The notes under the pieces are model-generated. The model saw only the letters and a list, made by a program, of their open reading frames with translations, searched no databases and was not told where the DNA came from. Below are positions 8,701 to 34,309 of a stretch of 40,069 nucleotides of DNA, piece after piece. Made by a program: the position numbers and the translations under genes. The first letter of the stretch is position 1. Each line of letters starts with the position of its first letter. This stretch comes from Candidatus Gallacutalibacter pullistercoris (lineage in GTDB: Bacteria > Bacillota > Clostridia > Oscillospirales > Acutalibacteraceae), in NCBI GenBank assembly GCA_018710915.1, contig DVIY01000220.1, forward strand, positions 1-40,069, given 5' to 3'.

Positions 8701-9121
8701 AGCTGCCGCCGCGACGGATCGTTTCCCTTTCCGCAAAGCTAACCCGCGAATTGGCAGCAGGCACTGCCCGCCCCTTGCGGGAAAACGGAGGGGAGCGGCG
8801 TCAGGAACAGGACAAGGCCCCTTTTTTTCTTGCAAAAAGGGGCCTCTTGAAAAAAATCCCACCGGGATATTTTTCAATTCACCACCAAAAATGCGCCCTG
8901 CGGAAAAAAGGGTTTCGCCCATTGCGATGGGCGATTGGGGGCTTCTCGCCCCCTAACCCCCTCGCCGCCTTTTGGTAAAAGTCGGGCGAAAACTTTAACT
9001 TCACGGGGTAGCAAAGTGAAAATTTTTAGCTTTCTCCACGCGAACAGCTGACGCCGCGACAGATAGTTTTCCTTTTCGCAAAGCTTACCCGCGAATTGGC
9101 AGCGGGCACTGCCCGCCGCGA
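8701..9121 (-). repeat. Modular multi-hairpin intergenic repeat, copy A (minus orientation), with two 72-bp direct repeat units (8701-8772 and 9046-9117) flanking the core
   Basis: Reverse complement matches copy B: GGGGGCgagaaGCCCCC, TCGCCCATcgcaATGGGCGA, gcgcattttNggtgaatt, AGGCCCCTTTTTTgcaagAAAAAAAGGGGCCT. Confidence 0.85.
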
Positions 9122-9192
9122 CGGATAGCTCTCTATACGGAAAAGCCCGCCCGTTATTATTATGATTGATACAGTAAGAAAGGAGCGAAACC

Positions 9193-10503
9193 ATGGCAGT
9201 TCTCATCCAACAGGTACACCCAAACGGCCCCGCCGATGCGGCCGGAATCCGGGCGGGGGAAACCCTCGTTTCCATTAACGGCAGCACCATTATGGATGTG
9301 CTGGATTACCGCTTTTATGAGACCGATTCCCGCCTGACCGTGACCGTGCAAAACCAGCAGGGAGAAGAGCGCTCGGTGTTCATCCGCAAGGGGCAGTATG
9401 AGTCCCTGGGGCTGGAGTTTGAAACCTATCTCATGGATAAACAGCACTCCTGCCGGAATAAGTGTATTTTCTGCTTTATCGACCAGCTTCCCAAAGGGAT
9501 GCGGGAAAGCCTGTATTTTAAGGACGACGACTCCCGCCTTTCCTTCCTTTTTGGAAATTATATCACCCTGACCAATCTCAGTGAACATGAAATTGACCGC
9601 ATTATCAAAATGCATATCAGCCCCATCAATGTGTCCATCCACACCACCAACCCCGAGCTTCGGTGCAAAATGATGGGTAACCGCTTTGCCGGAAAAGCCC
9701 TGGGGCTGTTAAAACGCTTTGCCGATGCAGGCATCCACATCAACGGCCAGCTGGTGCTGTGCCCGGGCATTAACGACGGCCCCGAGCTGGAGCGGACGCT
9801 AAACGACCTGTATGCCCTGGGCGAAAATGTCCAGAGCATCGCCTGCGTGCCCGTAGGTGTCACCCGCTATCGGGAGGGTCTGTACCCGTTGACTACCTAT
9901 ACAAAAGAAACCGCCGAAGCCACCCTGCGCCAGATTGAAGCCTTTGGCGACAGGTTCCAAAAAGAGCGCGGCGCCCGCACCGTGTATGCTTCTGATGAGT
10001 TCTATCTGCTGGCAGAAAGGGAAATCCCCGAGCCGGAATTTTATGAGGACTTCGCCCAGCTGGAAAACGGCGTGGGCCTTTTGGCCAGCTTGCAGGAGGA
10101 ATTCCGCTTTGCTTTGGAGGGCTTTACATCACCCGAAATAAAACGCCGCGTCACCATCGCTACCGGTGAAGGGGCTTATGCGTTCCTCAACAGAATGCTT
10201 GACGAACTGCGCGCAAAATGCGATACTATAGAGTGTAATGTGGTTCCTGTTCACAATGACTTTTTTGGCGGAACGGTGAACGTTTCCGGCCTTCTCACCG
10301 GACAGGACCTGTTTGCCCAGCTACAGGGCCGCGATTTGGGGGACGCCGTACTCATCCCCTGCGTCACCCTGCGGCAGCAGGAGGACGTGTTTCTGGACGA
10401 TATGTCAGTCAGTGAGCTTTCTCAAAAGCTGGGCGTGCCGGTTATCCCGGTCATTAACGAAGGCCAGCACCTGCTGGACGCTATTACAGGGAGGGATACC
10501 TGA
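9193..10503 (+). CDS. DUF512-family PDZ/radical SAM-like protein
   Basis: N-terminal PDZ-like NGPADAAGIRAGETLVSING, CRNKCIFCFIDQLPKGMRESLYFKDDDSRLSFLFGNYITLTNL; C-terminal DUF512-like region. Confidence 0.9.
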   Translation: MAVLIQQVHPNGPADAAGIRAGETLVSINGSTIMDVLDYRFYETDSRLTVTVQNQQGEERSVFIRKGQYESLGLEFETYLMDKQHSCRNKCIFCFIDQLPKGMRESLYFKDDDSRLSFLFGNYITLTNLSEHEIDRIIKMHISPINVSIHTTNPELRCKMMGNRFAGKALGLLKRFADAGIHINGQLVLCPGINDGPELERTLNDLYALGENVQSIACVPVGVTRYREGLYPLTTYTKETAEATLRQIEAFGDRFQKERGARTVYASDEFYLLAEREIPEPEFYEDFAQLENGVGLLASLQEEFRFALEGFTSPEIKRRVTIATGEGAYAFLNRMLDELRAKCDTIECNVVPVHNDFFGGTVNVSGLLTGQDLFAQLQGRDLGDAVLIPCVTLRQQEDVFLDDMSVSELSQKLGVPVIPVINEGQHLLDAITGRDT

Positions 10504-11828
10504 TGTCAAAACCGGTAGTGGCCGTTGTCGGCCGCCCCAACGTGGGCAAATCTACCTTGTTTAATAAACTCATCGGCCAGCGCCTGTCTATTGTGGACGA
10601 TACCCCCGGCGTGACCCGTGACCGGATTTATGGGGAATGTGAATGGAAAAACCGGAAATTCTCGCTGGTGGATACCGGCGGTATCGAGCCGGATTCTTCC
10701 GATGTCATTTTGTCTCAAATGCGCTTGCAGGCGCAGCTGGCCATTGACGCCGCCGATGTGATTATCCTGGTAACGGATGTCCGCACCGGTTTGGTGGCCA
10801 CTGATTCGGACATTGCCGCCATGCTGCTGAAAAGCGGTCGGCCTGTCATCGTCTGCGTGAACAAGTGCGACTCGGTGGGCGAGCCCCCGGCAGATTTTTA
10901 TGAATTTTATAACCTGGGCCTGGGCGACCCCATCCAGGTTTCTTCTGTCCACGGCCACGGCACCGGCGATTTGCTGGACGCAGTGGTAGGCCTGCTCCCG
11001 CCCGAGGAGGACGAAGACGAGGACGGCGAAACCATCCGGGTGGCCATTATCGGCAAGCCCAATGTGGGAAAATCCTCGCTGGTAAACCGGATTTCCGGTG
11101 AAAATCGCTGCATCGTTTCCGACATTGCCGGCACCACCCGTGACGCCATTGATACGGAAATTGAAAACGAGTTCGGCAAGTTTGTGCTCATCGACACGGC
11201 CGGCCTTCGCCGCAAAAACAAGGTGGAGGATGCCATTGAAAAATACAGCAACCTGCGGGCCCAAATGGCCATTGAGCGGGCAGATGTGTGCGCCATCCTC
11301 ATTGACGCCGAAGTGGGCTTTACCGACCAGGATTCCAAGGTGGCGGGGCTTGCCCACGAGGCAGGCAAAGGCTGCGTAATCGTGGTGAACAAATGGGACG
11401 CCATTGAAAAGGACCAGGACACCATGTCCGAGTTCCGCAAAAAGCTGGAAAAGGATTTTTCCTTTATGTCCTATGCGCCCTTTGTGTTTATTTCCGCCAA
11501 GACCGGCCAGCGCATCGACCGGCTGTTTGAGCTGATTAAGCACGTGGCCAGCAGCAACTCCATGCGGATTCCCACAGGCATGATTAACGACGTGCTGGCC
11601 CAGGCAGTGGCAAGAGTGCAGCCGCCCACAGACAAGGGCAAGCGGCTCAAGATTTATTATATGACCCAGGCCTCCACCCGTCCGCCCACATTTGTGTGCT
11701 TTGTCAACTCGGCGGAGCTGTTCCACTTCTCCTACCAGCGGTATCTGGAAAACCGGATTCGCGAAACTTTTGGTATGGAGGGTACCCCCATCCGGTTTAT
11801 CATCCGCGAGCGGGGAGAGAAGAACTAA
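10503..11828 (+). CDS. der: Ribosome biogenesis GTPase Der (EngA)
   Basis: Two GTPase domains (GRPNVGKSTLFN, GKPNVGKSSLVN), NKCD/NKWD motifs, KH-like C-terminus. Confidence 0.97.
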   Translation: MSKPVVAVVGRPNVGKSTLFNKLIGQRLSIVDDTPGVTRDRIYGECEWKNRKFSLVDTGGIEPDSSDVILSQMRLQAQLAIDAADVIILVTDVRTGLVATDSDIAAMLLKSGRPVIVCVNKCDSVGEPPADFYEFYNLGLGDPIQVSSVHGHGTGDLLDAVVGLLPPEEDEDEDGETIRVAIIGKPNVGKSSLVNRISGENRCIVSDIAGTTRDAIDTEIENEFGKFVLIDTAGLRRKNKVEDAIEKYSNLRAQMAIERADVCAILIDAEVGFTDQDSKVAGLAHEAGKGCVIVVNKWDAIEKDQDTMSEFRKKLEKDFSFMSYAPFVFISAKTGQRIDRLFELIKHVASSNSMRIPTGMINDVLAQAVARVQPPTDKGKRLKIYYMTQASTRPPTFVCFVNSAELFHFSYQRYLENRIRETFGMEGTPIRFIIRERGEKN

Positions 11829-11885
11829 AGTAAAAACAGTCCCCTCAGCAGTCCGCTATTATCAATATTGAAGGAGAGATTACCC

Positions 11886-12611
11886 ATGGATTTCAGTCAT
11901 TTTGCAGACTTCATCCTGCCGGGAATCGGCGCGGCTATCATTGCCTATCTCTTGGGAAGCCTGAGCTTCTCCATTATCCTCACCCGTATTTTTAAAAACC
12001 ACGAGGACATCCGCTCCTATGGCAGCGGCAATGCCGGCGCTACCAATGTGCTGCGCTCGGTGGGCAAAAAGGCCGCCGCCCTCACCTTTTTGCTGGACTT
12101 CCTCAAGTGTGTGGTGGCCGTGATTATCGGCAAGCTGATTTTCGGCTATGTGGCCGCACAAATCGGCGTGGGGGATACGGCGGTTCAATATGGCGCATAC
12201 ATTGCGGGCTTTGCCTGCCTGCTGGGGCATGTGTTCCCGGTGTATTTTGGTTTCCGGGGCGGAAAAGGTGTTGTCACCAGCGCTGCCATGATGGCGCTGA
12301 TTGACTGGCGTGTGTTTATTATTGTGCTGCTTACCTTTATCATTGCCTTTGCCCTCAAAAAGATTGTGTCCCTCGGCTCGGTGCTGGCAGCTTGTGTCTA
12401 TCCGGTGGCGACTTTCCTGATTACCTTTTTTCTCGACTACAAAATGCAGTTCCTTTCTATGGTCAGCAGTGCGAACATTACCTATGTGGTGATTTCCACA
12501 GTTTTGTCGTTGCTCATCGCGCTGACGGTGATTATCCTGCACCGCGCCAATATCAAGCGGCTGCTGGCCGGGGAAGAAAAGCAGATTTCTTTCAGCGGCC
12601 CCAAAAAATAA
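11886..12611 (+). CDS. plsY: Acyl-phosphate glycerol-3-phosphate acyltransferase PlsY
   Basis: GSGNAGATNVLR, LGHVFPVYFGFRGGKGVVTS; RBS ggagag. Confidence 0.95.
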   Translation: MDFSHFADFILPGIGAAIIAYLLGSLSFSIILTRIFKNHEDIRSYGSGNAGATNVLRSVGKKAAALTFLLDFLKCVVAVIIGKLIFGYVAAQIGVGDTAVQYGAYIAGFACLLGHVFPVYFGFRGGKGVVTSAAMMALIDWRVFIIVLLTFIIAFALKKIVSLGSVLAACVYPVATFLITFFLDYKMQFLSMVSSANITYVVISTVLSLLIALTVIILHRANIKRLLAGEEKQISFSGPKK

Positions 12612-12623
12612 AATAGACAGCAA

Positions 12624-12668
12624 CCCCCGGTTCTGCGTACAGGCAGGACCGGGGGCGTTTATTTTACA
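12624..12668 (+). terminator. Intrinsic terminator after plsY
   Basis: CCCCCGGTTCTGC gtaca GGCAGGACCGGGGG then cgtttattttac. Confidence 0.75.
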
Positions 12669-12699
12669 GGAAACGGAGAAATCATTATTGAAAATGTTA

Positions 12700-13716
12700 T
12701 CACTGCCTTTTCCATTCCTCATAAGGTATTTTATGAGCAATTGCGTATTCGTGGGCATAAGAATCTTTTGGAGCACAAATCACAGCCTGTGAAGTATTGA
12801 CAAAGGCGTCTTCTGCAATGTAAGAGACGCTTTCGGGAATATACACCTTTTCAAGCAGTACACAATCGGCAAAAGCTACATTAGATATGGTCCTTATGGT
12901 GTCTGGAAGTATGACCGAAGTCAGGTCATCAGTAGGCCGAAATGTGCTTGAACCGAGTGCTCTTACCTCGATTCCATCAATCTGGCTGGGGACAATTACA
13001 TCTTTCTCTCCATTTTTTGCGAAAAAACTGGTTATCACACAAACTGGTGCGCCAATGGAATCATATAAGATATCATACACAATCTTTTCATGGTATTGCT
13101 GCATATATACGGCCTGCGGCTTTTCTTTTTCCGGTACTGACACCAGTGGTTTCGGTGTGTAATACTCGAACGGGATATGCTGTTCACAGGCAAATTTTTC
13201 GGCAAAAGAGCCTTTTTCTACATACAGGGTAACGTTTGGGCTGTCAACAAAAGCGTTGTCGGTAATTTCTTCCACACTGGCCGGTATATATACTTCTTTC
13301 AGTGCTTTGCAGTTGGCAAAAGCCATGTTGTAAATAGATTTGACTGTTTTGGGCAAGATTACCTTTTGAAGGTTTGCAAGTCCCTGGAAAGCTTCCCGCG
13401 TAATCTCGGTAATCGGGATTCCATCATACTCATGCGGTGTATCTGCTACAGGGAAGTCATACTCGCCAGCCTTGAATTTTAACACAGCCGCCAGCTTTCT
13501 CCCTTTTTTATCCTGGTGGAAGGAAATCAAAAACTGGCCATCCCGCGATATTCTGGGGCTATACTCTATCTCACAGGCTTTTGCAATCAGGCGCTGCTCT
13601 TCTATTTTTCGAAGCTTGAGTGCATAGGCGCTGCCAAATACCCCTGTTAGCAGCACAGCCGTACCCAATAATATAGTAATAATACGCTTCTTTTTTGTCA
13701 TCCTCCTGTTTTTCAT
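12700..13716 (-). CDS. Membrane-anchored leucine-rich repeat (BspA/LRR_5-type) protein
   Basis: N-terminal KNRRMTKKKRIITILLGTAVLLTG anchor; repeated LQKVILPKTVKSIYNMAFANCKALKEVYIPASVEEITDNAF pattern; RBS on minus strand aaggaggaaag. Confidence 0.85.
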   Translation of the reverse strand: MKNRRMTKKKRIITILLGTAVLLTGVFGSAYALKLRKIEEQRLIAKACEIEYSPRISRDGQFLISFHQDKKGRKLAAVLKFKAGEYDFPVADTPHEYDGIPITEITREAFQGLANLQKVILPKTVKSIYNMAFANCKALKEVYIPASVEEITDNAFVDSPNVTLYVEKGSFAEKFACEQHIPFEYYTPKPLVSVPEKEKPQAVYMQQYHEKIVYDILYDSIGAPVCVITSFFAKNGEKDVIVPSQIDGIEVRALGSSTFRPTDDLTSVILPDTIRTISNVAFADCVLLEKVYIPESVSYIAEDAFVNTSQAVICAPKDSYAHEYAIAHKIPYEEWKRQ

Positions 13717-13789
13717 AAAACTTTCCTCCTTCTTTGACAGTAGGCAATTGTTTTATAAAAATTATAAATTTTGTAAACTTGTTATTTTT

Positions 13790-13818
13790 ATACTATCATC
13801 TATGAGCAAATTTGTCAA
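13790..13818 (-). promoter_or_regulatory. SigmaA-type promoter for LRR gene
   Basis: Minus-strand TTGACA (13813-13818), 17 bp, TAGTAT (13790-13795). Confidence 0.7.
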
Positions 13819-13942
13819 CAAACGACACTTTATTTCCTTTGCAATACCATTTTAAAAAAGCTGTGAATTTGCAGAGCTTTCTCATATTCGATATGCTGTT
13901 TCCATATGCATAAAAGAGAGCAATGTGAAAGGGAGTGACCGG

Positions 13943-14764
13943 ATGTTCGCAGTGTGGAAGAAGCAGCAGGTTCTGGTAGGGTTGGGTGTGTTCGTGGTGT
14001 TTTCCGGCCTGATGGTTTCATGGCTGGCAACCCTGGCACAGGGCGGTGCACAGCCGGCTTCGGCAGACACGAACTGGGGCCTGAGCTTCCAGCAGGAAGG
14101 GAAAACCCCTGTTGGGAATGCTTCCCCGGAGTTTCTTGCCCAGTATGATGCCTGCTATGCCGGAAGTGAAGAAAAAAAGGTGATTTATCTGACTTTTGAC
14201 GCGGGCTATGAAAACGGCTGTACACCCGCTATCCTGGACGCGCTGAAAAAACATTCCGTAAAAGCCGCGTTCTTTGTGGTGGGAAATTACATCGAAACCA
14301 GCCCGGAGCTTGTAAAGCGTATGGTAAAAGAAGGGCATCTGGTGGGGAACCATACATACCACCACCCGGATATGTCTTCAATCTCGGAAAAAGCCTCATT
14401 TGAAAAAGAACTGGCCAGCCTGGAAGCTTTGTATGAAGAAACAACCGGAGAAAAAATGCAGAAATATTATCGCCCACCGCAGGGGAAATACAGCGAGAGC
14501 AACTTGCAGCAGGCGCAGGAATTGGGATATCACACAGTTTTTTGGAGCCTTGCCTATGTAGACTGGTACCAGGACAAACAGCCCAGCCATGAAGAAGCCT
14601 TTGAAAAGCTGACCGGACGCATCCATCCGGGCGCAATTGTGCTGCTGCACAGTACTTCTCAAACCAACGCGGAGATTCTCGATGAACTTCTGACCCGCTG
14701 GGAGCAGATGGGGTATACCTTCGGCACCCTGCCTGAGCTTTTTAAAGAGACATCTTCAAAATAG
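13943..14764 (+). CDS. Polysaccharide deacetylase, PdaA-like (delta-lactam peptidoglycan de-N-acetylase)
   Basis: YLTFDAGYENGCTPAILDALKKHSVKAAFFVVGNYI, GNHTYHHPDM, YRPPQGKYSE; N-terminal signal/TM. Confidence 0.9.
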   Translation: MFAVWKKQQVLVGLGVFVVFSGLMVSWLATLAQGGAQPASADTNWGLSFQQEGKTPVGNASPEFLAQYDACYAGSEEKKVIYLTFDAGYENGCTPAILDALKKHSVKAAFFVVGNYIETSPELVKRMVKEGHLVGNHTYHHPDMSSISEKASFEKELASLEALYEETTGEKMQKYYRPPQGKYSESNLQQAQELGYHTVFWSLAYVDWYQDKQPSHEEAFEKLTGRIHPGAIVLLHSTSQTNAEILDELLTRWEQMGYTFGTLPELFKETSSK

Positions 14765-14910
14765 CAATTAAAACCTTATATAGTTGGTAATGTTTTCTAA
14801 AAAAGCAGGGACTTTTTTCTTTTTGCCTGATGTGGTATACTAAACCTGCTATGAGAAATTGCGGCCGGAGGTTCCGACGCGTTTTATTAAAGTATACAGG
14901 AGGAGATCAG

Positions 14911-15864
14911 GTGGAAGAAAAACGATTTGCAGTATTGATTGACGCAGAAAATGTATCCAATATTTATATCAAATATATTCTCGATGAGATTTCGAATTAT
15001 GGCAGTGTGACCTATAAGCGCATCTATGGCGACTGGACCAGCTCGTCAGCATCCGGCTGGAAGAGCCAGCTGCTCGAAAATTCCATCACGCCGGTGCAGC
15101 AGTACAGCTATACCTATGGCAAAAATGCAACCGACTCCGCGATGATTATCGATGCCATGGATATCCTGTATTCCGGAAATGTGGAGGGGTTCTGTCTGGT
15201 TTCCAGCGACAGTGACTTCACCAAGCTGGCTACCCGTTTGCGCGAATCCGGCATGATGGTGGTGGGGATGGGGGAAAAGAAGACCCCAAAACCATTCAGT
15301 GTGGCATGCAATGTGTTCAAATATCTCGAGGTGCTGCGCGCTGATGCTGAGGCAGAGGCAGCGGAGGAAAAAACCGACAACAGCGAAAATATGACGGATA
15401 TCGATACCATCCTGCGCGCGATGGTGAATATCATCAGTGAGAACAGCGACGAAGAAAAAGGAATCAGCATCGGCGAGTTGGGCAATCACCTGCTCAAGCG
15501 CTACCCGGATTTTGATGTACGCAACTATGGTTATACCAAGCTTTCCAAATTCCTTTCTTCTTTTGACGGGCTGAGCCTCACACGCATCAATAATGTCATC
15601 TTTGTATCGCTGCGGCAGAACCATCTGGACGCAGATTCTGTCCGGCTGGCAATCGTAGCCTATGTGCGCGATTGGGAAAAATCCCGGCACAGCAGGGTGA
15701 ATCTGGGCCAGCTGAACCAGTGGCTGATGGAAAAATACCCGCAGTTCAATGTAAAGAACTACGGGTACACCACTTTTGTGAAATTTGTCAGCGATATCCA
15801 GGGCCTGGTCGTAAAAAGCAGCGGCAAAAACGGACGTATCAAGCATGTGCATCTGGTGCAATAA
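14911..15864 (+). CDS. NYN-domain (PIN-like) protein with two OST-HTH/LOTUS domains
   Basis: FAVLIDAENVS ... DSAMIIDAMDILYSGNVEGFCLVSSDSDFTKLATRLRESG; two repeats ISIGELGNHLLKRYPDFDVRNYGYTKLSKFL and VNLGQLNQWLMEKYPQFNVKNYGYTTFVKFV; GTG start with RBS aggagga. Confidence 0.9.
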   Translation: MEEKRFAVLIDAENVSNIYIKYILDEISNYGSVTYKRIYGDWTSSSASGWKSQLLENSITPVQQYSYTYGKNATDSAMIIDAMDILYSGNVEGFCLVSSDSDFTKLATRLRESGMMVVGMGEKKTPKPFSVACNVFKYLEVLRADAEAEAAEEKTDNSENMTDIDTILRAMVNIISENSDEEKGISIGELGNHLLKRYPDFDVRNYGYTKLSKFLSSFDGLSLTRINNVIFVSLRQNHLDADSVRLAIVAYVRDWEKSRHSRVNLGQLNQWLMEKYPQFNVKNYGYTTFVKFVSDIQGLVVKSSGKNGRIKHVHLVQ

Positions 15865-15872
15865 ATAAAAGT

Positions 15873-16253
15873 TTACAGCACGTTATCCAGCGTGACCGTT
15901 TCGGTTTCAGTCAGTTGTGCAAATTGCGCGGCAGCAAGGCTGCACCGGGCTTCTAATATTCCGATTTCGTGGTTTTGAATCAGCGCAGGCAGTTCGGCCA
16001 GCGTTTCTTGAATGGGCGCCAGGCTGGCATGGGGCATAAAGGTGCACAGCTTTCGGTGTTCTTCTTCCCATTGATGCTGTAAACTTCGGCTTACTGCCAG
16101 TGCACTGGAATAATTCCCGTTGTAAATTTCTGCCCGCAGTCGGCTGAGTCCTTCCGTCATTTTGTGGGAGGAGGACTGTGCAGTGGAATATCCCAGCCCA
16201 CATAATATCAACAGCAATACCAGCAGAATACCGGATGCCCACAAACGTTTCAT
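15873..16253 (-). CDS. DUF4363 family membrane-anchored protein
   Basis: N-terminal TM, paired with downstream-overlapping DUF421 gene as is common in Clostridia. Confidence 0.75.
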   Translation of the reverse strand: MKRLWASGILLVLLLILCGLGYSTAQSSSHKMTEGLSRLRAEIYNGNYSSALAVSRSLQHQWEEEHRKLCTFMPHASLAPIQETLAELPALIQNHEIGILEARCSLAAAQFAQLTETETVTLDNVL

Positions 16254-16957
16254 GATGTGCTGCCCCCTTTCATGGTGGAGAGATTGTCACCCTGCTTGGG
16301 AATGATGGCATACCCGCCCTGCGTGTCGGCGGTCATAATAAATACCTGCCGCAGGGAGAGCCCCTGCTGGGACAGGATGTCTTCGGCCCAGCGGCGGCTC
16401 TGGCCGCACAGGCGCAGGGAAGAGTCCGAAAATTCGCCGTCGCTGATGACCACCACTTCCAGACCCGTGTCGGATGGGCAGAGCCCCAGCAGCTGGTTGG
16501 TGGGCTGGTCAGCTTCCGGCTTTTTGACAATGCTCAGCTTGCCGTTGGTCTCCATAATCGCCCAGGCCACATCGCGGATAGAAAAGACGTCCTTTTCTCG
16601 CAGCTCTTCAAAGAGGTCTTCGATGCTCAAACGCAGACGGGACATTTCTTTCTGATCCAGCTGCCCATTATTGATGAGCACGATGGGTTTGCCACACACC
16701 AGGCGGCGGAATTTACCGCTTTTGAGCATAAAAACAGAGATGGCAATTTCACACATGACCAGAACCGCAATGGGGATAAAGCCACTGGCCAATGGTTGGC
16801 CGGTATCCTGCATGGGAATCGCTGCGATGTCGGAAATCAGCAGGGTTACCACCAGCTCGGAAGTCTGCAGCTCGCTGATTTGCCGTTTCCCCATAAGCCG
16901 TACAGCAGCCAGGATGACTATGTACAGCAGAACGGTGCGCACAAAAGAAATAATCAT
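16250..16957 (-). CDS. DUF421 (YetF-like) membrane protein
   Basis: LYIVILAAVRLMGKRQISELQTSELVVTLLISDIAAIPM; minus-strand RBS ggaggtttct before ATG at 16957. Confidence 0.93.
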   Translation of the reverse strand: MIISFVRTVLLYIVILAAVRLMGKRQISELQTSELVVTLLISDIAAIPMQDTGQPLASGFIPIAVLVMCEIAISVFMLKSGKFRRLVCGKPIVLINNGQLDQKEMSRLRLSIEDLFEELREKDVFSIRDVAWAIMETNGKLSIVKKPEADQPTNQLLGLCPSDTGLEVVVISDGEFSDSSLRLCGQSRRWAEDILSQQGLSLRQVFIMTADTQGGYAIIPKQGDNLSTMKGGSTS

Positions 16958-17071
16958 AGAAACCTCCATTTATCGGGATAAGCCGCAAAGAATGATTCGC
17001 GGAAGCCTATTGCTTTCTTACCCATATTTTGCCGCAAGGAAAAAAGGAATATACATTTCTGCAAAAAAACC

Positions 17072-17100
17072 TTGACATTTTGTATGAGGCTGCGTATAAT
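17072..17100 (+). promoter_or_regulatory. Consensus sigmaA promoter for infC-rpmI-rplT
   Basis: TTGACA (17072-17077), 17 bp, TATAAT (17095-17100). Confidence 0.92.
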
Positions 17101-17106
17101 AACTTA

Positions 17107-17257
17107 GGTAAAACAAAGAAGAACAGAAAGGTTCTCACCTGTGGAGTTTCGTCTGTCACGGGTCAATACGATTGGAAGAACAGAGCAGAGGCTCTGTTTG
17201 TTTTCCTGAGGATTGACGCACGGACAGAACTTTTTGTCCGTGCTTTTGTTTTGATGA
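17107..17257 (+). ncRNA. infC leader / L20-type attenuator
   Basis: ~180-nt leader between promoter and infC with terminator hairpin GCACGGACAgaactttTTGTCCGTGC followed by TTTTGTTTT; position matches known L20 autoregulatory leaders. Confidence 0.7.
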
Positions 17258-17282
17258 CTACGTGTTTTGGAGGTGCTTACCA

Positions 17283-17801: not shown

Positions 17802-17826
17802 TAAACACTTCTAAGGAGGAGCAGTC

Positions 17827-18030: not shown

Positions 18031-18075
18031 GATTTTGACTCATTGATTCCTATAATTTAGTTGGAGGTATAAGAA

Positions 18076-18429: not shown

Positions 18430-18505
18430 TAAGCTGTTAGTGCGCTCGGGGCCTGTTGGCTCCGGGCGTATCTTTTAGCTGCATTTTGAGAGAGAAAGGA
18501 CACGC

Positions 18506-19297: not shown

Positions 19298-19347
19298 TCG
19301 TTCACACAAAAGACCAATCTATACTGTAAAGAAAGAAGGGCAGCTGT

Positions 19348-22854: not shown

Positions 22855-22860
22855 ACCATG

Positions 22861-23190
22861 CGCGGCGGACAGTGTCCGCTTCCGAGTTCGCGAGGCAGCA
22901 GCATAAAAACTTGCACCTATTTCCCCGCGGCGGACAGTGTCCGCATCCAAGTTCGCGGGGCAGCAGCATAAAAATTTGCACCTGTTTCCCCGCGAATATA
23001 AAGTTTTCGTCAACCTTTTTCAAAAGGTTGCGAGGGGATAAGGGGGCGAGAAGCCCCCAATCGCCCATCGCAATGGGCGAAACACCCCAAACCTGAAAGG
23101 CGCATTTTCGGGGGTGAATTACAAAACATTCCGGGGGAATGTTTTGTAAGAGGGCCCCTTTTGCAAGAAAAAAGGGGCCCTGCCCTGTTT
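22861..23190 (+). repeat. Modular multi-hairpin intergenic repeat, copy B, with a tandem 65-bp unit at its 5' end
   Basis: 65-bp tandem units 22861-22925/22926-22990; hairpins 23011-23030, 23042-23058, 23061-23080, 23119-23149, 23151-23181; matches reverse complement of copy A. Confidence 0.88.
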
Positions 23191-23276
23191 CAAATGTAGC
23201 CTTTCCCTGGTTTTCCAAGGGGAAACCAGAAATGTAATCCCCTCATACCAGAACCCCAACAGGAAAGGAGTCCCAC

Positions 23277-24587: not shown

Positions 24588-24633
24588 AAGAAATTGTCCG
24601 GCCAAAGCTTGCCGGTGAAATGAGGTGTTTGCA

Positions 24634-25659
24634 GTGAAAATCATCGTAGACGCATTTGGAGGGGACAACGCCCCCCTGGAAATCCTGAAAGGCTGCCAGA
24701 TGGCAGTGGAAGAGCTGGATATCGACATTCTGCTCACGGGCAGCGAGAAGGTGATTCGTCAGGTAGCAGCGGAAAATAATATTTCCCTAAACCGTATGGA
24801 GATTGCTGATGCACCGGACGTGATTACCATGGACGATTCCCCCAAGAGCATTATGAAAGAAAAAAGCGGCTGCTCCTTGGCAGAGGGCCTGCGCCGGTTG
24901 GCTGCCGGAGACGGTGACGCCTTTGTTTCTTCCGGAAACAGCGGCGCGCTGGTATTCGGTGCTAACATGATTGTGAAGCGCATTAAGGGCGTAAAGCGTG
25001 TGGCGTTTGCTCCGGTAATGCCCAAGGATGAGGGTTTCTTTATGCTGATTGACGGCGGTGCCAATGTGGAGTGTCGTCCCGAAATGCTCCAGCAGTTCGC
25101 CATGATGGGTTCGGCTTATATGGAGCATGTGATGGGTGTGAAAAATCCCCGTGTTGCACTGGCCAATGTGGGCACCGAAGACCACAAGGGCGGCGAACTC
25201 CAGCTGGAGGCTTTCGAGCTTTTGAAAAATACGCCGGTGAATTTTGTCGGCAATATTGAAGCAAGAGATATTCCTGTAGACGCTGGCGACGTGATTGTGT
25301 GCGACGGCTTTACCGGAAACATCATTTTGAAGCTGTATGAAGGCGTTGCTTTGACTTTGATGAAGAAGATTAAGAATGTCTTTACCAAGAGCACGAAAAA
25401 CAAGCTGGCGGCTGCTTTGATTTTGAACGATATGAAGGAGCTCAAAAAGCAGGTGGACTATAACGAGTATGGCGGCGCACCGATTATGGGTGCAGCAAAA
25501 CCTGTATTCAAAGCCCATGGCAGTGCCAAGGCGCAGACCTTTAAAAATGCACTTCGGCTGACAAAAGCCTATGTAGAGGGCGATGTGGTGAGTAAAATTA
25601 CCCGTTCTGTACAGGAAATGAAGACTGCCGAAACCACAGCTGAAGGAGGTCAGGCATGA
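24634..25659 (+). CDS. plsX: Phosphate acyltransferase PlsX
   Basis: KIIVDAFGGDNAPLEILKGC, DGGANVECRPEMLQQFAMMGSAYME; GTG start with RBS tgaggtg. Confidence 0.95.
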   Translation: MKIIVDAFGGDNAPLEILKGCQMAVEELDIDILLTGSEKVIRQVAAENNISLNRMEIADAPDVITMDDSPKSIMKEKSGCSLAEGLRRLAAGDGDAFVSSGNSGALVFGANMIVKRIKGVKRVAFAPVMPKDEGFFMLIDGGANVECRPEMLQQFAMMGSAYMEHVMGVKNPRVALANVGTEDHKGGELQLEAFELLKNTPVNFVGNIEARDIPVDAGDVIVCDGFTGNIILKLYEGVALTLMKKIKNVFTKSTKNKLAAALILNDMKELKKQVDYNEYGGAPIMGAAKPVFKAHGSAKAQTFKNALRLTKAYVEGDVVSKITRSVQEMKTAETTAEGGQA

Positions 25660-26351
25660 AGAATCTTCAGGAATTGGAAGAAAAAATCGGTTATCACTTT
25701 AAAGAGCCAACCTATATTATGACTGCGCTTACCCATTCCTCCTATGCCAATGAACATAAAGACGGCTGCAAGTGTAACGAGCGGCTGGAATTTTTGGGTG
25801 ACTCGGTGCTGGGCGTGGTGGTCGCCGACTACCTGTTCAAGCACCGCCCCGATTTGCCCGAAGGTGATTTGACCAAGATCCGCTCTTCGCTGGTGTGCGA
25901 AAAAGCACTGTGCGGTTACTCCAAACAGATGGGCGTGGGCGACTATCTGCGCCTGAGCCACGGCGAACGGAATTCCGGCGGAAGGACCCGCCCCAGTATT
26001 CTGGCCGATGCCTTTGAAGCGATTATTGCAGCGGTCTATATGGACGCCGGGGAAGAGCATGGCATGGAGGAAGCGCGGAAATTTATTCTCAAATATGTGC
26101 TGCCCGCGCTGAAAAGCGCCCGCCCCAAGGCATTCCGCGATTTCAAGACCGCTTTGCAGGAAATCATCCAGCAGAATCCCGAGGAGCGGCTGGAATATGT
26201 GCTCACCGGCGAGAGCGGCCCTGACCACAACAAGCACTTTACTGTGGAGGTCCACCTGAACAGCAACGTAATCGGCAAGGGCGGCGGACGCAGCAAAAAA
26301 GAAGCCGAGCAGCAGGCTGCCCGGGAAGCCTTGGAGCTGATGGGCTATTGA
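25656..26351 (+). CDS. rnc: Ribonuclease III
   Basis: NERLEFLGDSVLGVVVADYLF, ADAFEAIIAAVYMDAG, dsRBD GKGGGRSKKEAEQQAAREAL; ATGA overlap with plsX. Confidence 0.97.
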   Translation: MKNLQELEEKIGYHFKEPTYIMTALTHSSYANEHKDGCKCNERLEFLGDSVLGVVVADYLFKHRPDLPEGDLTKIRSSLVCEKALCGYSKQMGVGDYLRLSHGERNSGGRTRPSILADAFEAIIAAVYMDAGEEHGMEEARKFILKYVLPALKSARPKAFRDFKTALQEIIQQNPEERLEYVLTGESGPDHNKHFTVEVHLNSNVIGKGGGRSKKEAEQQAAREALELMGY

Positions 26352-27361
26352 GCCGGGGGAATGTAGCGGTTTTTGTGCCCCACAACGGCTGCCCGCATCA
26401 GTGCAGCTTTTGTGACCAGCGACGCATTACCGGGCAGCAAAAGCAGCCCGCGCCGGAGGAGGTGTGGGCGATTGCCCAAAAAGCTGCACAGACGCAGGAT
26501 GTTTCCCAGTGTGAGTTGGCTTTTTTCGGCGGCAGTTTTACGGCCATTGACCGGGATTATTTTTGTTCTCTGCTGGCGGTTGCCAAACGTGCCCGCGAGG
26601 AGCTTGGCTTTGCCGGAGTGCGCTGTTCCACCCGTCCCGACGCAATTGATGAAGAACGGCTGGTACTTTTAAAAGAACATGGATTTACCACCATCGAGCT
26701 GGGCGCGCAGTGTATGGATGATGCGGTGCTGCGCCGGAATGGTCGGGGGCATACCGTACAGGATGTACAGCATGCTTCTGCACAAATCCAGGATTTTGGC
26801 TTTTCTCTGGGGCTGCAAATGATGACGGGCCTGCCCGGTGCAGACGAGAGCATTGACCGGGAAACGGCTGCGGCGTTTGCCGCCATCCACCCCGATTTTG
26901 TGCGGATTTACCCTACGTTGGTGCTGCCGGGAACCCGCCTTGCCCAGTGGTATGAAGAGGGCAGCTATCGGCCGCAGACATTGCAGCAGGCAGTCGAGCT
27001 TTGCAGCGGCCTGCTGCTGTTTTTTGAAAAAGCGGATATCCCCGTCATCCGGCTGGGGCTGCACGATACCCCGGACTTACAGCAGCAGGTACTCGCAGGG
27101 CCTTATCATCCGGCTTTCCGGCAGCTCTGCGAGAGCCGTATTTTTTTGCGAAATACGCTTTCCCTTTTGGGCGAAAATTGCCGGAACAGCGGGGAAGAGG
27201 TGGTTCTGGCGGTGCATCCCAAGAGCATCTCCAATGCATTGGGGCAGAAAAGGGGCAATCTCACGGAACTGCAAAAGCGGGGCTGGCGAGTCCGGTTTGT
27301 GCAGGATGCTTCCGTTTTGCCGGGGCAGATAGAAAAAAGAGTCAACGAAAGGAAAAGGTGA
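26348..27361 (+). CDS. Elp3-like radical SAM protein
   Basis: VAVFVPHNGCPHQCSFCDQRRITG (CxxxCxxC), FFGGSFTAI, ELGAQCMDDAVL; TTG start overlapping rnc stop. Confidence 0.88.
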   Translation: MSRGNVAVFVPHNGCPHQCSFCDQRRITGQQKQPAPEEVWAIAQKAAQTQDVSQCELAFFGGSFTAIDRDYFCSLLAVAKRAREELGFAGVRCSTRPDAIDEERLVLLKEHGFTTIELGAQCMDDAVLRRNGRGHTVQDVQHASAQIQDFGFSLGLQMMTGLPGADESIDRETAAAFAAIHPDFVRIYPTLVLPGTRLAQWYEEGSYRPQTLQQAVELCSGLLLFFEKADIPVIRLGLHDTPDLQQQVLAGPYHPAFRQLCESRIFLRNTLSLLGENCRNSGEEVVLAVHPKSISNALGQKRGNLTELQKRGWRVRFVQDASVLPGQIEKRVNERKR

Positions 27362-27367
27362 AAAACC

Positions 27368-30300
27368 GTGCTGCTGAAGTCATTGGAATTACAGGGGTTC
27401 AAAACCTTTCCCGATAAAACAACGCTGCACTTTGAAGAGGGCATCACCGCAGTGGTAGGCCCCAATGGCAGCGGAAAAAGCAATATCAGCGACGCTATGC
27501 GGTGGGTGCTGGGCGAGCAGTCGGTGAAAACGCTGCGCTGCTCCAAAATGGAGGATGTGATTTTCAGCGGGACGCCGGCGCGAAAGCCGATGGGCTATGC
27601 AGAAATCACCCTGACCATCGACAACACCGGCCGGGAGCTTCATTTTGACGGGGATACCGTGGCGATTACCCGACGGTATTACCGTTCCGGAGAAAGCGAA
27701 TACATGATCAATAAAGCCGCCGTGCGCCTGCGCGATATCCACGAACTTTTTATGGATACCGGCCTTGGCCGCGACGGTTATTCCATCATCGGGCAAGGCA
27801 AGATTGACAGCATTGTGGCGGCCCGTTCTGAAGACCGCCGCGAAATTTTTGAAGAAGCCGCCGGGATTTCCCGTTTCCGTTACCGCAAAGAAGATGCGGA
27901 GCGCCAGCTGGCAAAGGCGGAAGAAAACCTGCTTCGCCTGCGTGATATCGTCTCTGAGCTGGAAAGCCGCATTAACCCGCTGCGCGAACAGGCGGAAAAG
28001 GCAGAACGTTTTCTCGCGCTGTCGCAGGAAAAGAAGACGCTGGAAATCGGCCTGTGGCTGGAAACTTTGAACCGTTCCGGCCGTGTGCTGCGTGAGCAGG
28101 AGGATAAAATCACGTTGGCGCAGTCCCAACAAGCAGACATTACCGGTGAGCTGGATGCGCTGGCCGCCCGGATTGAAGAAACCTATACCGCGATCAATAC
28201 CTGTTCTGTACAGATGGAAGAGCTGCGCAATCAAGCTGCTTCTGATGAAGAGAATGCTGCCCGGCTGGAAGGTGAAATTTCCGTGTTGGAAAACGATATC
28301 CACCACGCCCAGCAGGATATGGAGCGGATTCAGGACGAAATCCAGCGTTCTGCTTCTTCCCAAAAAAATCTGGATTGGGAAATTGCATCCCGCCAGACCG
28401 AAATGCAGGTGAAGGAGAAAGAAGCTCAGGCGCGTGAAACGGAGTTCCAGCAGGCAACCGAAAGTCTGAATGACTTGCGCCGCAGCGCCGACGAAGTTGC
28501 CCGGCAGGTAGACAGCCTTTCGGTGCAGTTGGCCGAAAAGAATACCGCGCTTTCTGAGGCGCGCGTGCAGGCAACTGGTGCAGAATCCACTGTGCGGGAA
28601 ATCACCGCCCGGCAAGGTTCGATTGAACAGACCCTTGCTGCCCGGCAGGAACAGGAAGCCAAAATACAGCGGGAGATTCTGGAAACAGAAGAGATGCTGC
28701 ATGCGGCAGATGGGCGGATGGAAAGCCTGCGTAATGCTGTGCGCGGGTATGAGATGCGCGTAGAGTCCCGCCGCAAAAAGGCAGAGGAACAGAAAAAGGT
28801 CAATGACCAGCTGCATCTGGACATTCAGGAGCAACTGCGCCGTGCGAAAATCCTCGAAGATCTGGAACGGAATCTGGAAGGCTTTGCACAGAGCGTCAAA
28901 GCTGTAATGAAAGAAGCGCATCGAGGAAATCTTTCCGGTATTCACGGGCCGCTTTCCCGCTTGTTCCGGGTTCCGCAGCAGTATGCAGTGGCCATTGAAA
29001 CCGCTATGGGTGCCGCCATGCAGAACATCGTCGTGGGAACGGAGCAGGATGCAAAAGCAGCTATCCGATTGCTGCAGCAGAGGGACGCAGGCCGTGCCAC
29101 GTTCTTGCCTCTTTCCACGATTCGCGGCAATCTGCTGGAAGAGCCTTCACTGGAAAATTGCCCTGGATTTGTCGGGGTGGCCGCTTCGCTGTGCAGCTGT
29201 GAGGAGGAATATGAGGGTGTACTCAATTCTGTGCTGGGAAGAATCGCGGTTGCCGAGGATTTGGACAGCGCCGTTGCGATTGCCCGGCGATTCCGCTACC
29301 GCTTCCGCATTGTCACGCTGGATGGTCAGGTGGTCAACGCCGGCGGCTCGCTGACCGGCGGTTCGCTGGCGAGAAATTCCGGCCTTTTAAGCCGCGCCTC
29401 CGAAATCGTCCGGCTCCGTGAAAAAGCCGCTGCCATGCAGCAGAAAGCGCAGAAAGATGCCGCCCGTCTAAAAGAGTTGAACGCAGAGGTTGCCGCTGCG
29501 CAGGCAGAGCTTTCTTCTTCCAAAGGAGACCTTTCTGCCGCGCAGGAAGAACGCTTTCAGATTGAAACTGAAAAAAAGCGCATGGAAACCGAGCTGCTCA
29601 CCGTCCGGCACCATATTGGGGAGCTATTGCAAGAGCAAAAAACAGCCGATACCCGCCTGCAAGCGCTGCGGCAGAAGTTAAAGGAAGCCCGGAAGCTGGA
29701 AGAAAGCCTTTCTGCAGAAATCGACAGGTTACAAGAAGAAATCCAGTCTGCTGTGGGCAATCGGGAAGATTTGTCCCGGCGCAGTGAAGAAGTCACCGCC
29801 CATTTGCAGGAAATCCGCATGGCGGCGCTTTCTGCCCAAAAAGACCGCGAAGCGCTGGAAAATACAGTCGAAGACCTGCGCCGCCGCAAGGAAGATTTTG
29901 CGGGAAGAATGGAAGAATTACGGGGGCAGATTGAGAAATCGAAAACCTCTATACAGGAATTTTCCCGGGAAATCGAAGACCGCCGCCATCAGGTGGAAGA
30001 GCGCAGGGAGTCGGCACAAAGCGCCCGCGAAAAGGCAGAGCTTGCCGGAAAACGCCGCGATGAGCTGGAAAAACGCTCTGGCGAGCTGAGAGCCAGCGAG
30101 CGGGACTATAACAACCAGCGCGAAAACCTGAGCCAGGAGCTTGCCCGGTTGGAAGAACGCCGCGACGGCCTGCAAAAGGAATATGACGGCATTATCAGCC
30201 GGTTGTGGGATGAATATGAGCTGACCCGTCGGGAAGCAGAACAAATCGGCATCCGCATTTCTGATGAAGGCGAAGCCAAGAAACGCTTGAACGAAATCAA

Positions 30301-30937
30301 GCTGAAAATCCGCGGCCTGGGCAGCGTCAATGTGGCGGCCATTGAGGAGTATCAGGAAGTATCCGAACGGTATGAATTCCTTATGGCACAGATTGAAGAC
30401 GTAGAGCACTCCAAAGAAGAGCTGGTACGGCTGATTCACGATTTAACCCGCCATATGCAGGAGCTGTTTACGGCCCGGTTCGATGAAATCAGCCGTCATT
30501 TTACCGGAATTTTCAAAGAATTATTTGGCGGAGGAACCGCTTCGCTGACGCTGACCGACCCCAGCGACGTGCTGCATTCGGGCATAGAGATTTCGGTGCA
30601 GCCGCCGGGAAAAATTGTCACGCATATCGAGTCGCTTTCCGGCGGTGAAATGGCGCTGGTGGCCATTTCGATTTACTTTGCCATTATGAAGGTCAGCCCG
30701 CCGCCGTTCTGTGTGCTGGATGAGATTGAGGCCGCGCTGGATGACGTAAACGTAACGCGGTTTGCCAATTACCTTCGGCGCATGAATCGGAATACCCAGT
30801 TTATCGCTATCACCCACCGCCGGGGCACCATGGAAGAAGCCGACGTGCTCTACGGTGTGACGATGCAGGACCAGGGCGTTTCCAAATTGCTGGAGCTGCG
30901 CAATACGGAAGATGGCGAGAAAATGGGCGCAATATAA
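27368..30937 (+). CDS. smc: Chromosome segregation protein SMC
   Basis: VVGPNGSGKSNISDAMRWVLGEQS, long coiled coil with hinge, C-terminal ESLSGGEMALVAISIYFAIM...VLDEIEAALDDVNV. Confidence 0.97.
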   Translation: MLLKSLELQGFKTFPDKTTLHFEEGITAVVGPNGSGKSNISDAMRWVLGEQSVKTLRCSKMEDVIFSGTPARKPMGYAEITLTIDNTGRELHFDGDTVAITRRYYRSGESEYMINKAAVRLRDIHELFMDTGLGRDGYSIIGQGKIDSIVAARSEDRREIFEEAAGISRFRYRKEDAERQLAKAEENLLRLRDIVSELESRINPLREQAEKAERFLALSQEKKTLEIGLWLETLNRSGRVLREQEDKITLAQSQQADITGELDALAARIEETYTAINTCSVQMEELRNQAASDEENAARLEGEISVLENDIHHAQQDMERIQDEIQRSASSQKNLDWEIASRQTEMQVKEKEAQARETEFQQATESLNDLRRSADEVARQVDSLSVQLAEKNTALSEARVQATGAESTVREITARQGSIEQTLAARQEQEAKIQREILETEEMLHAADGRMESLRNAVRGYEMRVESRRKKAEEQKKVNDQLHLDIQEQLRRAKILEDLERNLEGFAQSVKAVMKEAHRGNLSGIHGPLSRLFRVPQQYAVAIETAMGAAMQNIVVGTEQDAKAAIRLLQQRDAGRATFLPLSTIRGNLLEEPSLENCPGFVGVAASLCSCEEEYEGVLNSVLGRIAVAEDLDSAVAIARRFRYRFRIVTLDGQVVNAGGSLTGGSLARNSGLLSRASEIVRLREKAAAMQQKAQKDAARLKELNAEVAAAQAELSSSKGDLSAAQEERFQIETEKKRMETELLTVRHHIGELLQEQKTADTRLQALRQKLKEARKLEESLSAEIDRLQEEIQSAVGNREDLSRRSEEVTAHLQEIRMAALSAQKDREALENTVEDLRRRKEDFAGRMEELRGQIEKSKTSIQEFSREIEDRRHQVEERRESAQSAREKAELAGKRRDELEKRSGELRASERDYNNQRENLSQELARLEERRDGLQKEYDGIISRLWDEYELTRREAEQIGIRISDEGEAKKRLNEIKLKIRGLGSVNVAAIEEYQEVSERYEFLMAQIEDVEHSKEELVRLIHDLTRHMQELFTARFDEISRHFTGIFKELFGGGTASLTLTDPSDVLHSGIEISVQPPGKIVTHIESLSGGEMALVAISIYFAIMKVSPPPFCVLDEIEAALDDVNVTRFANYLRRMNRNTQFIAITHRRGTMEEADVLYGVTMQDQGVSKLLELRNTEDGEKMGAI

Positions 30938-31009
30938 ATTCTGCTGATTTTACCGCAGAAGTGTGCTATACTATAACAAACCGCCACCATTATGAATGGA
31001 GTGATTTGA

Positions 31010-31930
31010 ATGGGATTATTCAGTAAAATCAAGGAAGGCCTGAAAAAGACCCGTGAGAGCATCAGCTCCCAGATCAGCGGGATGCTGCGTTCCTTTACCA
31101 AAATTGACGAAGAGTTGTTTGAAGAGCTGGAAGAGCTGCTGGTGATGGGCGATGTGGGCGTCACCACTGCTGGGCATATCTGCGATACCCTGCGCCGCCG
31201 GGTGAAAGAAGAGGGAATCAAAGACCCCAACGCCATTATGGGTTTGTTGCAGGAAACCGTGGCCGAGATGATTCGCGGTGGGGAAGAATTGAACATCGGC
31301 ACTCGCCCCTCCATGATTCTGGTAATCGGCGTTAACGGTGCAGGTAAAACTACCACCATCGGCAAGCTGGCTTCCCGCCTGAAAGGGGAAGGGAAGCAGG
31401 TAATTCTGGGCGCGGCGGATACCTTCCGCGCTGCAGCCATTGAGCAGCTGGAAATCTGGAGCCAGCGGGCAGGCGTGCCCATGATTAAGCACGCCGAAGG
31501 CAGCGACCCGGCAGCCGTGGTGTTCGATACCATCGCGGCAGCAAAAGCCCGCGGCAGCGATGTGATTATCTGTGACACCGCCGGACGGCTGCACAACAAG
31601 AAAAACCTGATGGACGAGCTGGCAAAAATCAACCGCATCACCGACCGGGAGCTGCCCGGCTGTGATAAAGAGGTGCTGCTGGTGCTCGATGCCACTACCG
31701 GCCAGAACGGTGTGAACCAGGCACGGGAATTCAGCGCGGCGGCGGGAATTACCGGTATTGTGCTCACCAAGCTGGACGGCACTGCCAAAGGCGGCGTAGT
31801 ATTGGCGATTCGGGAAGAGCTGGGTCTGCCGGTGAAATTTATCGGTGTAGGCGAACAGGTAGACGACTTGCAGCCCTTTGACGCCGATGATTTTGCCCGT
31901 GCGCTGTTTGAGCGGGACGACCGCTGGTAA
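31010..31930 (+). CDS. ftsY: Signal recognition particle receptor FtsY
   Basis: GVNGAGKTTTIGKLASRL, AADTFRAAAIEQLEIW, ICDTAGRLHNKKNLMDEL, TKLDGTAKGG. Confidence 0.97.
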   Translation: MGLFSKIKEGLKKTRESISSQISGMLRSFTKIDEELFEELEELLVMGDVGVTTAGHICDTLRRRVKEEGIKDPNAIMGLLQETVAEMIRGGEELNIGTRPSMILVIGVNGAGKTTTIGKLASRLKGEGKQVILGAADTFRAAAIEQLEIWSQRAGVPMIKHAEGSDPAAVVFDTIAAAKARGSDVIICDTAGRLHNKKNLMDELAKINRITDRELPGCDKEVLLVLDATTGQNGVNQAREFSAAAGITGIVLTKLDGTAKGGVVLAIREELGLPVKFIGVGEQVDDLQPFDADDFARALFERDDRW

Positions 31931-31949
31931 GCGGGGAAAGAAAACAGTA

Positions 31950-32164
31950 CGCGTGGAGAAAGCCTACAAAAAGCAGTATCTACCCCGCGGATATACGGAT
32001 TCCAAAGGGGCTTAGTCCCTTTGGCGAGGGGGTTAGGGGGCGAGAAGCCCCCAATCGTCCGTCGCAACGGACGAAATTTTTATACATCCAACAACGCGGG
32101 AAGAGGTGAGAAAACTGTCCGGTGGACAGTTTTCGAGGGGAAACCCACGTCTGGGGTTTTCCCT
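31950..32164 (+). repeat. Modular multi-hairpin intergenic repeat, copy C (diverged)
   Basis: cgcgtggagaaagc...taccccgcg as in copy A; hairpins 32002-32024, 32036-32052, 32055-32074, 32110-32134, 32136-32164 in same order as copies A/B. Confidence 0.8.
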
Positions 32165-34279: not shown

Positions 34280-34309
34280 TTACGGTAACAGTGTAATATG
34301 TAAAAGGCT

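What the first reader, a model, noticed from the sequence alone, without database searches (positions are those of the whole stretch)
8701..32164. Family of modular multi-hairpin intergenic repeats (three copies in 40 kb)
Three non-coding spacers (A 8701-9121 minus, B 22861-23190 plus, C 31950-32164 plus) share one architecture. It runs: a CGCGgGG...CCCCGCG-type region, hairpin H1, 'gagggg(t/a)taa', H2 GGGGGCgagaaGCCCCC, H3 TCG-N5-cgca-N5-CGA, a spacer, H4 (11-14 bp stem with GGT/GGG loop), then H5 (11-12 bp stem, C/G-rich). No transposase or protein-coding signature is present. The copies sit between housekeeping genes (rpmF/DUF512, topA/trmFO, ftsY/rdgB). The organisation resembles BOX-type modular repeats of streptococci but the sequence is different. 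I do not recognise a named family, though novelty cannot be established here. Possible roles include transcript processing or stability, protein-binding sites, or a non-autonomous mobile element.
Basis: partly seen in the sequence, partly recalled or inferred. Interest (0 to 1): 0.75.

Follow-up and report, generated by a model that had tools for sequence, protein, structure and literature searches.

The report
Hairpin-mosaic mobile repeats in Heritagella
The three look-alike spacers are copies of an undescribed family of DNA repeats built from swappable hairpins, scattered through these gut bacteria and their relatives; one branch jumps with the help of an IS1182-type transposase that lands on gene-end hairpins and copies the whole hairpin on both sides.

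Summary
Spacers A, B and C belong to one dispersed, hairpin-built repeat family. The genome has ~42 BLAST matches to copy B, and all five genomes of the genus (Candidatus Heritagella) carry the family. Rfam has no match. Stems covary strongly (98.4% of cells paired, 22 of 33 pairs with compensatory change) and G·U pairs are rare, which points to a DNA-level palindrome mosaic rather than an RNA gene.

There are two 3' halves: type I (A, B) and type II (C). Modules are swapped, duplicated and invaded by a second repeat at orthologous sites of sister species.

Intact type-II copies are MITEs of an IS1182-family insertion sequence: both end types match. They are flanked by 21-34-bp direct repeats equal to the target's entire terminator hairpin, in Heritagella and another genus. 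Full-length IS copies show the same (20-33 bp). One insertion has a clean empty site in the sister species. Such hairpin duplication was drawn for IS1182-type transposition (Wan 2017, pathway b) but not observed there.

What moved A and B (type I) is unresolved: no IS1182 ends, no target duplication. The H1-H2-H3 core recurs in at least 20 genera of the family.

The parts
8701..9120 (-). Copy A (type I), antisense to rpmF and DUF512; flanked by two ~72-nt copies of a link/alpha-like module in the same orientation
9046..9117 (-). A: 5' link/alpha-like module
   Evidence: direct repeat D2, 90% to 8701-8772
8701..8772 (-). A: 3' copy of the link/alpha-like module
   Evidence: direct repeat D2
9000..9044 (-). 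A: alpha module TTCGCGTGG...CCCCGTGA
   Evidence: sequence; nhmmer module census
8963..8989 (-). A: H1 hairpin after AAAGTTTTCG
8937..8953 (-). A: H2 GGGGGCgagaaGCCCCC
8915..8934 (-). A: H3, loop CGCA
8847..8877 (-). A: H4, GGT loop, after the GCGCATTTTTGGTGGTGAATT linker
8815..8845 (-). A: H5
22861..23229 (+). Copy B (type I), between topA and trmFO, starting 7 bp after the topA stop codon
22861..22925 (+). B: first link-alpha unit; tandem duplicate of 22926-22990, absent from the orthologues in G003 and G004
22926..22999 (+). B: second link-alpha unit
23012..23029 (+). B: H1 AACCTTTTTCAAAAGGTT
23042..23058 (+). B: H2
23061..23080 (+). B: H3
23100..23120 (+). B: conserved linker GCGCATTTTCGGGGGTGAATT, the Heritagella-specific signature
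23119..23149 (+). B: H4, GGG loop
23151..23181 (+). B: H5
23207..23229 (+). B: H6 CTGGTTTTCCaaggGGAAACCAG, 3' end of type I
31947..32163 (+). Copy C (type II 3' half, IS1182-type ends not recognisable), between ftsY and rdgB
31947..31990 (+). C: alpha module TACGCGTGG...CCCCGCGG
32002..32024 (+). C: alternative first hairpin H1' CCAAAGGGGCTTAGTCCCTTTGG
32036..32052 (+). C: H2; the sister species G004 carries the nested repeat X just upstream of it
32055..32074 (+). C: H3
32110..32134 (+). C: type-II H4' GAAAACTGTCCggtGGACAGTTTTC
32137..32163 (+). C: type-II H5' GGGGAAACCCacgtctGGGGTTTTCCC

Best explanation
A, B and C are copies of a dispersed, non-autonomous mobile repeat made of DNA hairpins joined by conserved linkers. 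Shown by sequence: the family is dispersed and polymorphic; its type-II branch is a MITE of an IS1182-family insertion sequence (both end types shared); new type-II copies sit between two copies of a whole terminator hairpin of the target. Inferred mechanism for type II: the IS1182-family transposase acts in trans, recognises a cruciform-prone terminator and joins the element ends at the two feet of the stem-loop; gap repair then duplicates the entire hairpin as a 20-34-bp target duplication. Inferred for internal variation: exchange of stems and 3' halves at fixed loci reflects recombination or conversion between copies anchored in the shared linkers. Not shown: what moved the type-I copies A and B. 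They share alpha-H1-H2-H3 with the IS1182 MITEs but have a different 3' half, no IS1182 ends and no target duplication.
For: Copy number and dispersal. Empty site: the C103 insertion (L028, 327 bp) is absent from sister species G004, which has one terminator hairpin there; G000 has two flanking the element, a 30-bp perfect repeat. Other type-II copies: hairpin duplications of 26 and 28 bp in Heritagella, more by eye. In another genus, type-II MITEs of mostly 258 bp have 21-34-bp hairpin duplications in all ten copies with both ends found (nine by script, L264 by eye because of a loop indel). IS partner: a 1526-bp IS in G106 and a 1510-bp IS in G109 have hairpin duplications of 20-33 bp in 7 of 8 copies with both flanks read; the eighth (L187) shares its right hairpin with L181, as after recombination. 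The transposase scores 400 bits against NF033551 IS1182, cut-off 270. Both end types, CAGnnTGTCGAnnAACCC and CAGnnTGTCGAAAAAGT, match between IS and MITE. G003 (same genus) has the C-terminus of such a transposase followed by end TTTTTCTACAAGCTG and a hairpin. Module exchange: site C is type II in G000 and G004 but type I in G003; further swaps, an oppositely oriented copy and a tandem duplication. DNA-level palindromes: 98.4% of cells paired, 338 compensatory cells against 114.5 in shuffles; G.U 1.5% of alignment cells (0.4% of hairpin pairs) against 6.4% in tRNAs.
Against: None of the three window copies has intact IS1182 ends or a target duplication, so the mechanism is shown for relatives, not for A, B or C themselves. 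IS1182 ends were found only with type II, never with the type-I 3' half. No complete autonomous IS was found in Heritagella, only a contig-edge fragment in G003 and a scrap in G000, and none in the MITE-rich g99 genomes. A's site in G004 is not clean: an H4/H5 relic remains, so A may have eroded in G004 rather than arrived in G000. The type-II insertion L096 has an empty site but no visible duplication. Type I shows a context bias (54 of 58 between co-directional genes, 37:17 sense) that random insertion does not predict.
Confidence: 0.72

Rival explanations
1. The elements are functional structured RNAs placed in 3' UTRs or between cistrons (stabiliser, processing site or attenuator), kept by selection on the transcript.
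For: Strong covariation with conserved loops and linkers. Type I lies almost only between co-directional genes (54 of 58 against 237 of 365 wide spacers, p = 3e-6), sense 37:17 (p = 0.009), often within ~40 bp of the upstream stop codon.
Against: Both orientations occur (A is antisense). G.U pairs are about four times rarer than in tRNAs in the alignment and rarer still in the hairpin scan. A.C mismatches, the G.U of the other strand, are about half as common as G.U (21:11 in the alignment, 11:6 in hairpins, the latter not different from equal, p = 0.33), so pairing is not clearly strand-specific. Terminator-like sites: none in B, one in C (0.6 expected), four in the A region of which one is the rpmF terminator (1.3 expected). 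Presence, orientation and modules change between species at the same locus. No Rfam family.
Confidence: 0.15
2. The core (H1-H2-H3 to H5) is a mobile unit in its own right, moved by an enzyme not yet identified; the IS1182 ends are only one vehicle that captured it. This is compatible with the best explanation for type II and differs on type I.
For: The core without IS1182 ends is repeated in other genera and in a second family of the order, with genus-specific outer sequences. Type I has none of the IS1182 ends.
Against: No candidate enzyme: the genus's Y1 transposases are not flanked by modules, and no copy with an ORF between modules was seen. Copies without ends could simply be decayed MITEs.
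Confidence: 0.35
3. Three unrelated terminator clusters, or an assembly artefact.
For: The genome is a fragmented assembly and hairpins are common at gene ends.
Against: Identical blocks with no chance expectation; copies inside contigs of five separately held genomes of the genus; orthologous copy B in three of them.
Confidence: 0.01

Closest known systems
BOX elements of streptococci (boxA-boxBn-boxC; PMC3049150)
   Same: Short, dispersed, intergenic, modular, with a tandemly repeatable module and strong predicted hairpins; non-autonomous.
   Different: By eye no resemblance in sequence (not tested with BOX models); here the 3' half is exchanged and stems vary with compensation; type II has IS1182-family ends and hairpin-length target duplications.
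IS1182-family insertion sequences, especially IS1272 (PMC5678879)
   Same: Transposase family (NF033551); inverted repeats/terminators as targets.
   Different: IS1272 replaces the target hairpin and leaves no duplication; here the hairpin is duplicated at both sides, which that paper only drew as a possible pathway (b). Most copies here are MITEs without a transposase gene.
MITEs (e.g. RUP of pneumococcus, an IS-derived repeat)
   Same: Terminal repeats shared with an IS, internal hairpins, no ORF, high copy number.
   Different: Target duplication is a whole variable hairpin of 20-34 bp; multi-hairpin core conserved across genera.
REP/BIME with RAYT (Y1) transposases
   Same: Hairpins at gene ends, non-autonomous.
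   Different: No Y1 transposase next to modules here; type II uses a DDE transposase and leaves a target duplication.

Membership tests
MITE of an IS1182-family IS (type II) | Both terminal sequences shared with the IS | tested here: met
   CAGnnTGTCGAnnAACCC and CAGnnTGTCGAAAAAGT at the two ends of IS and MITE; not recognisable at window copy C
MITE of an IS1182-family IS (type II) | No transposase gene | tested here: met
   257-327-bp elements, too short for a transposase
MITE of an IS1182-family IS (type II) | Target duplication like that of the IS | tested here: met
   Hairpin-length duplications in both
MITE of an IS1182-family IS (type II) | Autonomous partner in the same genome | tested here: inconclusive
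   Fragment at a contig edge in G003 and scrap in G000; none in g99
MITE of an IS1182-family IS applied to type I (A, B) | IS1182-type ends | tested here: not met
   ISL/ISR modules never found with the type-I 3' half
IS1182 family (the IS in G106) | Transposase over the curated cut-off | tested here: met
   NF033551, 400 bits, cut-off 270
BOX elements | boxA, boxB and boxC sequence modules | not tested
   Architecture resembles it (PMC3049150); BOX models were not run
Rfam structured RNA | Score at or above a family's gathering threshold | tested here: not met
   Only a T-box at 34301-34525 in the window; weak sub-threshold hits over the elements
IS200/IS605-type (Y1) non-autonomous elements | Y1 transposase with matching ends in the host | tested here: not met
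   Five Y1 matches in the genus, no modules beside them

The most novel reading that the evidence does not exclude
A hairpin-mosaic core shared by at least two families of the order is a mobile unit that spreads by DNA shape. IS1182-family transposases carry one form of it, cutting at both feet of terminator cruciforms so that the whole hairpin becomes the target duplication, while type I spreads by a second, unknown route. This would be a large unnamed class of bacterial repeats plus direct sequence evidence for a transposition pathway so far only drawn.
Probability: 0.4. Interest if true: 0.78.

Novelty: new variant of a known kind. Interest (0 to 1): 0.6.

Why it matters
Small interspersed repeats shape operons and genome assembly, yet few families outside enterics, neisseriae and streptococci are described (my knowledge). 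This one is abundant in gut Clostridia, absent from Rfam, and several contigs of the assemblies end in it. The hairpin-length target duplication gives a simple, testable prediction of how IS1182-family transposases read DNA shape rather than sequence, and would explain why they land harmlessly at gene ends. The near absence of G·U pairs in covarying stems is a caution: covariation in repeats need not mean a functional RNA.

Tried and rejected
1. Rfam at gathering and at relaxed thresholds: nothing credible over the elements. 2. Y1 (RAYT-like) transposases as movers: five matches in the genus, none flanked by modules. 3. DDE_Tnp_1_6 hits in G000 (L178, L179): no CAGnnTGTCGA ends seen beside them. 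4. The first genome contigs pattern was wrongly spaced and found nothing; the corrected one found 22 stretches in Heritagella and like MAGs and one chance alphaproteobacterium. 5. The first gene-context count was spoiled by spurious ORFs inside the elements; replaced by a codon-bias caller. 6. Several 'empty' sites in G004 (A, C238, C162) turned out to hold relics, so they are not used as proof of insertion. 7. Alpha as a free-standing element: rejected, never found alone in the census. 8. Terminator function of type I: B has no terminator-like site, A and C are not far above shuffles.
Full report
OBSERVATION. The three spacers were read directly. They share exact blocks that shuffled sequence does not produce, and the repeat finder pairs them independently. 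The neighbours are DUF512, topA, trmFO, ftsY and rdgB by Pfam. No Rfam family reaches its threshold over them.

COPY NUMBER AND RANGE. Copy B has ~42 BLAST matches in its own 2.35-Mb genome; some are two pieces of one copy. All five genomes of the genus match: 33, 5, 10, 42 and 24 matches at E <= 0.001 to the B core. A pattern on the type-I linker, scanned over one genome for each of 84,980 species, found 22 stretches in Candidatus Heritagella and like uncultured Clostridia, and one chance hit. The H1-H2-H3 part of the core (query positions ~10-97) matches 26 of 300 genomes drawn from the family, in 20 of 135 genera. A strict pattern on the type-II 3' half finds 37 copies in G203, 7 in G273, and 10 and 6 in two genomes of another family of the order, with no hit of the reversed control pattern.

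ANATOMY. In sense order: optional link hairpin; alpha (TTCGCG(T/G)GG ... CCCCGCGA); AAAGTTTTCGTC + H1, or an alternative H1'; GCGAGGGG; H2; H3 with a CGCA loop; then one of two 3' halves. Type I is linker GCGCATTTT..GTGAATT, H4, H5, H6. Type II is CGCGGGAAGGGGTGAG, H4' with a GTCCGGTGGAC core, and H5' GGGGAAACCC..GGGTTTCCCC. A and B are type I, C is type II. H4 and H4' occupy the same place and share the GGT-type loop, so the two halves are probably homologous (inference).

STRUCTURE. On 42 type-I cores, 98.4% of cells pair, 22 of 33 pairs show change on both sides, and the covariation score is 0.596 against 0.208 in shuffles; sliding the partners by one column drops pairing to about 62%. These copies are related, so counts are not independent events. 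G·U pairs are 21 of 1382 cells in that alignment and 11 of ~2720 pairs in a hairpin scan that penalises mismatches, against 33 of 516 in tRNAs of the sister genome (Fisher p = 1.5e-7 and smaller). A·C mismatches, which are the G·U of the other strand, are about half as common (11 and 6), not clearly different from equal. This favours maintenance of palindromes in DNA over selection on a transcript (inference); tRNA is an imperfect control.

DYNAMICS. G004 is a sister species (about 94-96% identical in most flanks) of which most sequence was fetched. Comparison shows: C103 (L028) absent from G004 as a clean empty site; a copy in opposite orientation at C200; site C type II in G000 and G004 but type I in G003; the nested repeat X present at site C in G004 only; the 65-bp alpha duplication of B only in G000; stems replaced with linkers kept at C256. 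A ~270-bp type-II insertion in G003 (L096) has a clean empty site in G004, without visible duplication. A's site in G004 keeps an H4/H5 relic, so erosion is possible there.

THE IS1182 LINK. Intact type-II copies begin CAGnnTGTCGATAAACCC and end CTTTTTCGACAnnCTG. An IS1182-family IS (473-aa transposase, NF033551 at 400 bits) in G106, and a related one in G109, have the same two end types. Seven of eight copies with both flanks read lie between perfect direct repeats of a complete terminator hairpin: 20, 21, 33, 22, 30, 26 and 31 bp. The exception, L187, shares its right hairpin with L181, consistent with recombination between copies. MITEs show the same: 30, 26 and 28 bp in Heritagella, and 21-34 bp in another genus, nine copies by script plus L264 by eye. 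G003 holds the C-terminal part of a close transposase whose end abuts a hairpin.

MECHANISM. [quoted passage not shown] Wan et al. 2017 (PMC5678879) drew exactly this as pathway b, while reporting for IS1272 replacement of the hairpin and no duplication. The paper also notes that an earlier review described palindrome targeting by some IS1182 members without detail; that review could not be read here, so prior notice of such duplications cannot be excluded. The joining step itself is inferred from sequence, not shown.

TYPE I. A and B have no IS1182 ends, and that is general: ISL/ISR modules were never found with the type-I 3' half. Type-I copies lie between co-directional genes in 54 of 58 cases against 237 of 365 wide spacers, with 37:17 sense, and the 5' end is often close to the upstream stop codon. 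They also follow the G-rich strand 23:7. Gene calls came from a simple codon-bias script, and orthologous copies are counted in each species. Y1 transposases are not associated. The mover of type I stays unknown.

COMPARISON. The family works like BOX or a MITE. Type II meets the defining features of an IS1182 MITE except a proven autonomous partner in the same genome. Type I fails the end test and should not be filed there. BOX sequence models were not run.

VERDICT. A real, unnamed, modular, hairpin-built repeat family; type II mobile by IS1182-family transposition with hairpin-length target duplication (well supported for relatives, not shown for the window's own copies); type I of unknown mobility; an RNA role possible but weakly supported.

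Noticed in passing
L005:1400-1520; L057 near 19070; L060:15081; L236: A second repeat X (TGTTGTTTGCCAGTGGCAAACGTTGAACACCGACCGAGCCGGCAGGCGAGA and variants) sits inside hairpin loops or linkers of the main family and of another repeat, and also occurs in other genera. At site C it is present in G004 and absent in G000.
   Followed up: partly
L106:7870-8020: At the C44 site the sister species has, in place of the element, a different repeat containing CTCCCTCCGTCACGGCTTATGCCGTGCCACCTCCCTC.
   Followed up: no
window 34301-34525: T-box leader (RF00230) on the plus strand.
   Followed up: no
L187 and L181 (G106): IS copy L187 has two different hairpins at its sides, its right one equal to the left one of L181, consistent with recombination or rearrangement between two IS copies.
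   Followed up: partly
L070:7190-7400 vs L084:4100-4400: The H4-H5 stems are replaced by another pair of hairpins (AAAAGTTGACGC..GCGTCAACTT and GAAAGAAAGCG..CGCTTTCTTT) at an orthologous locus.
   Followed up: partly
L061:9665, L065:7009, L068:982, L116:11661: The H1' hairpin (TCCAAAGGGACTTAGTCCCTTTGG) also occurs alone, away from other modules.
   Followed up: no
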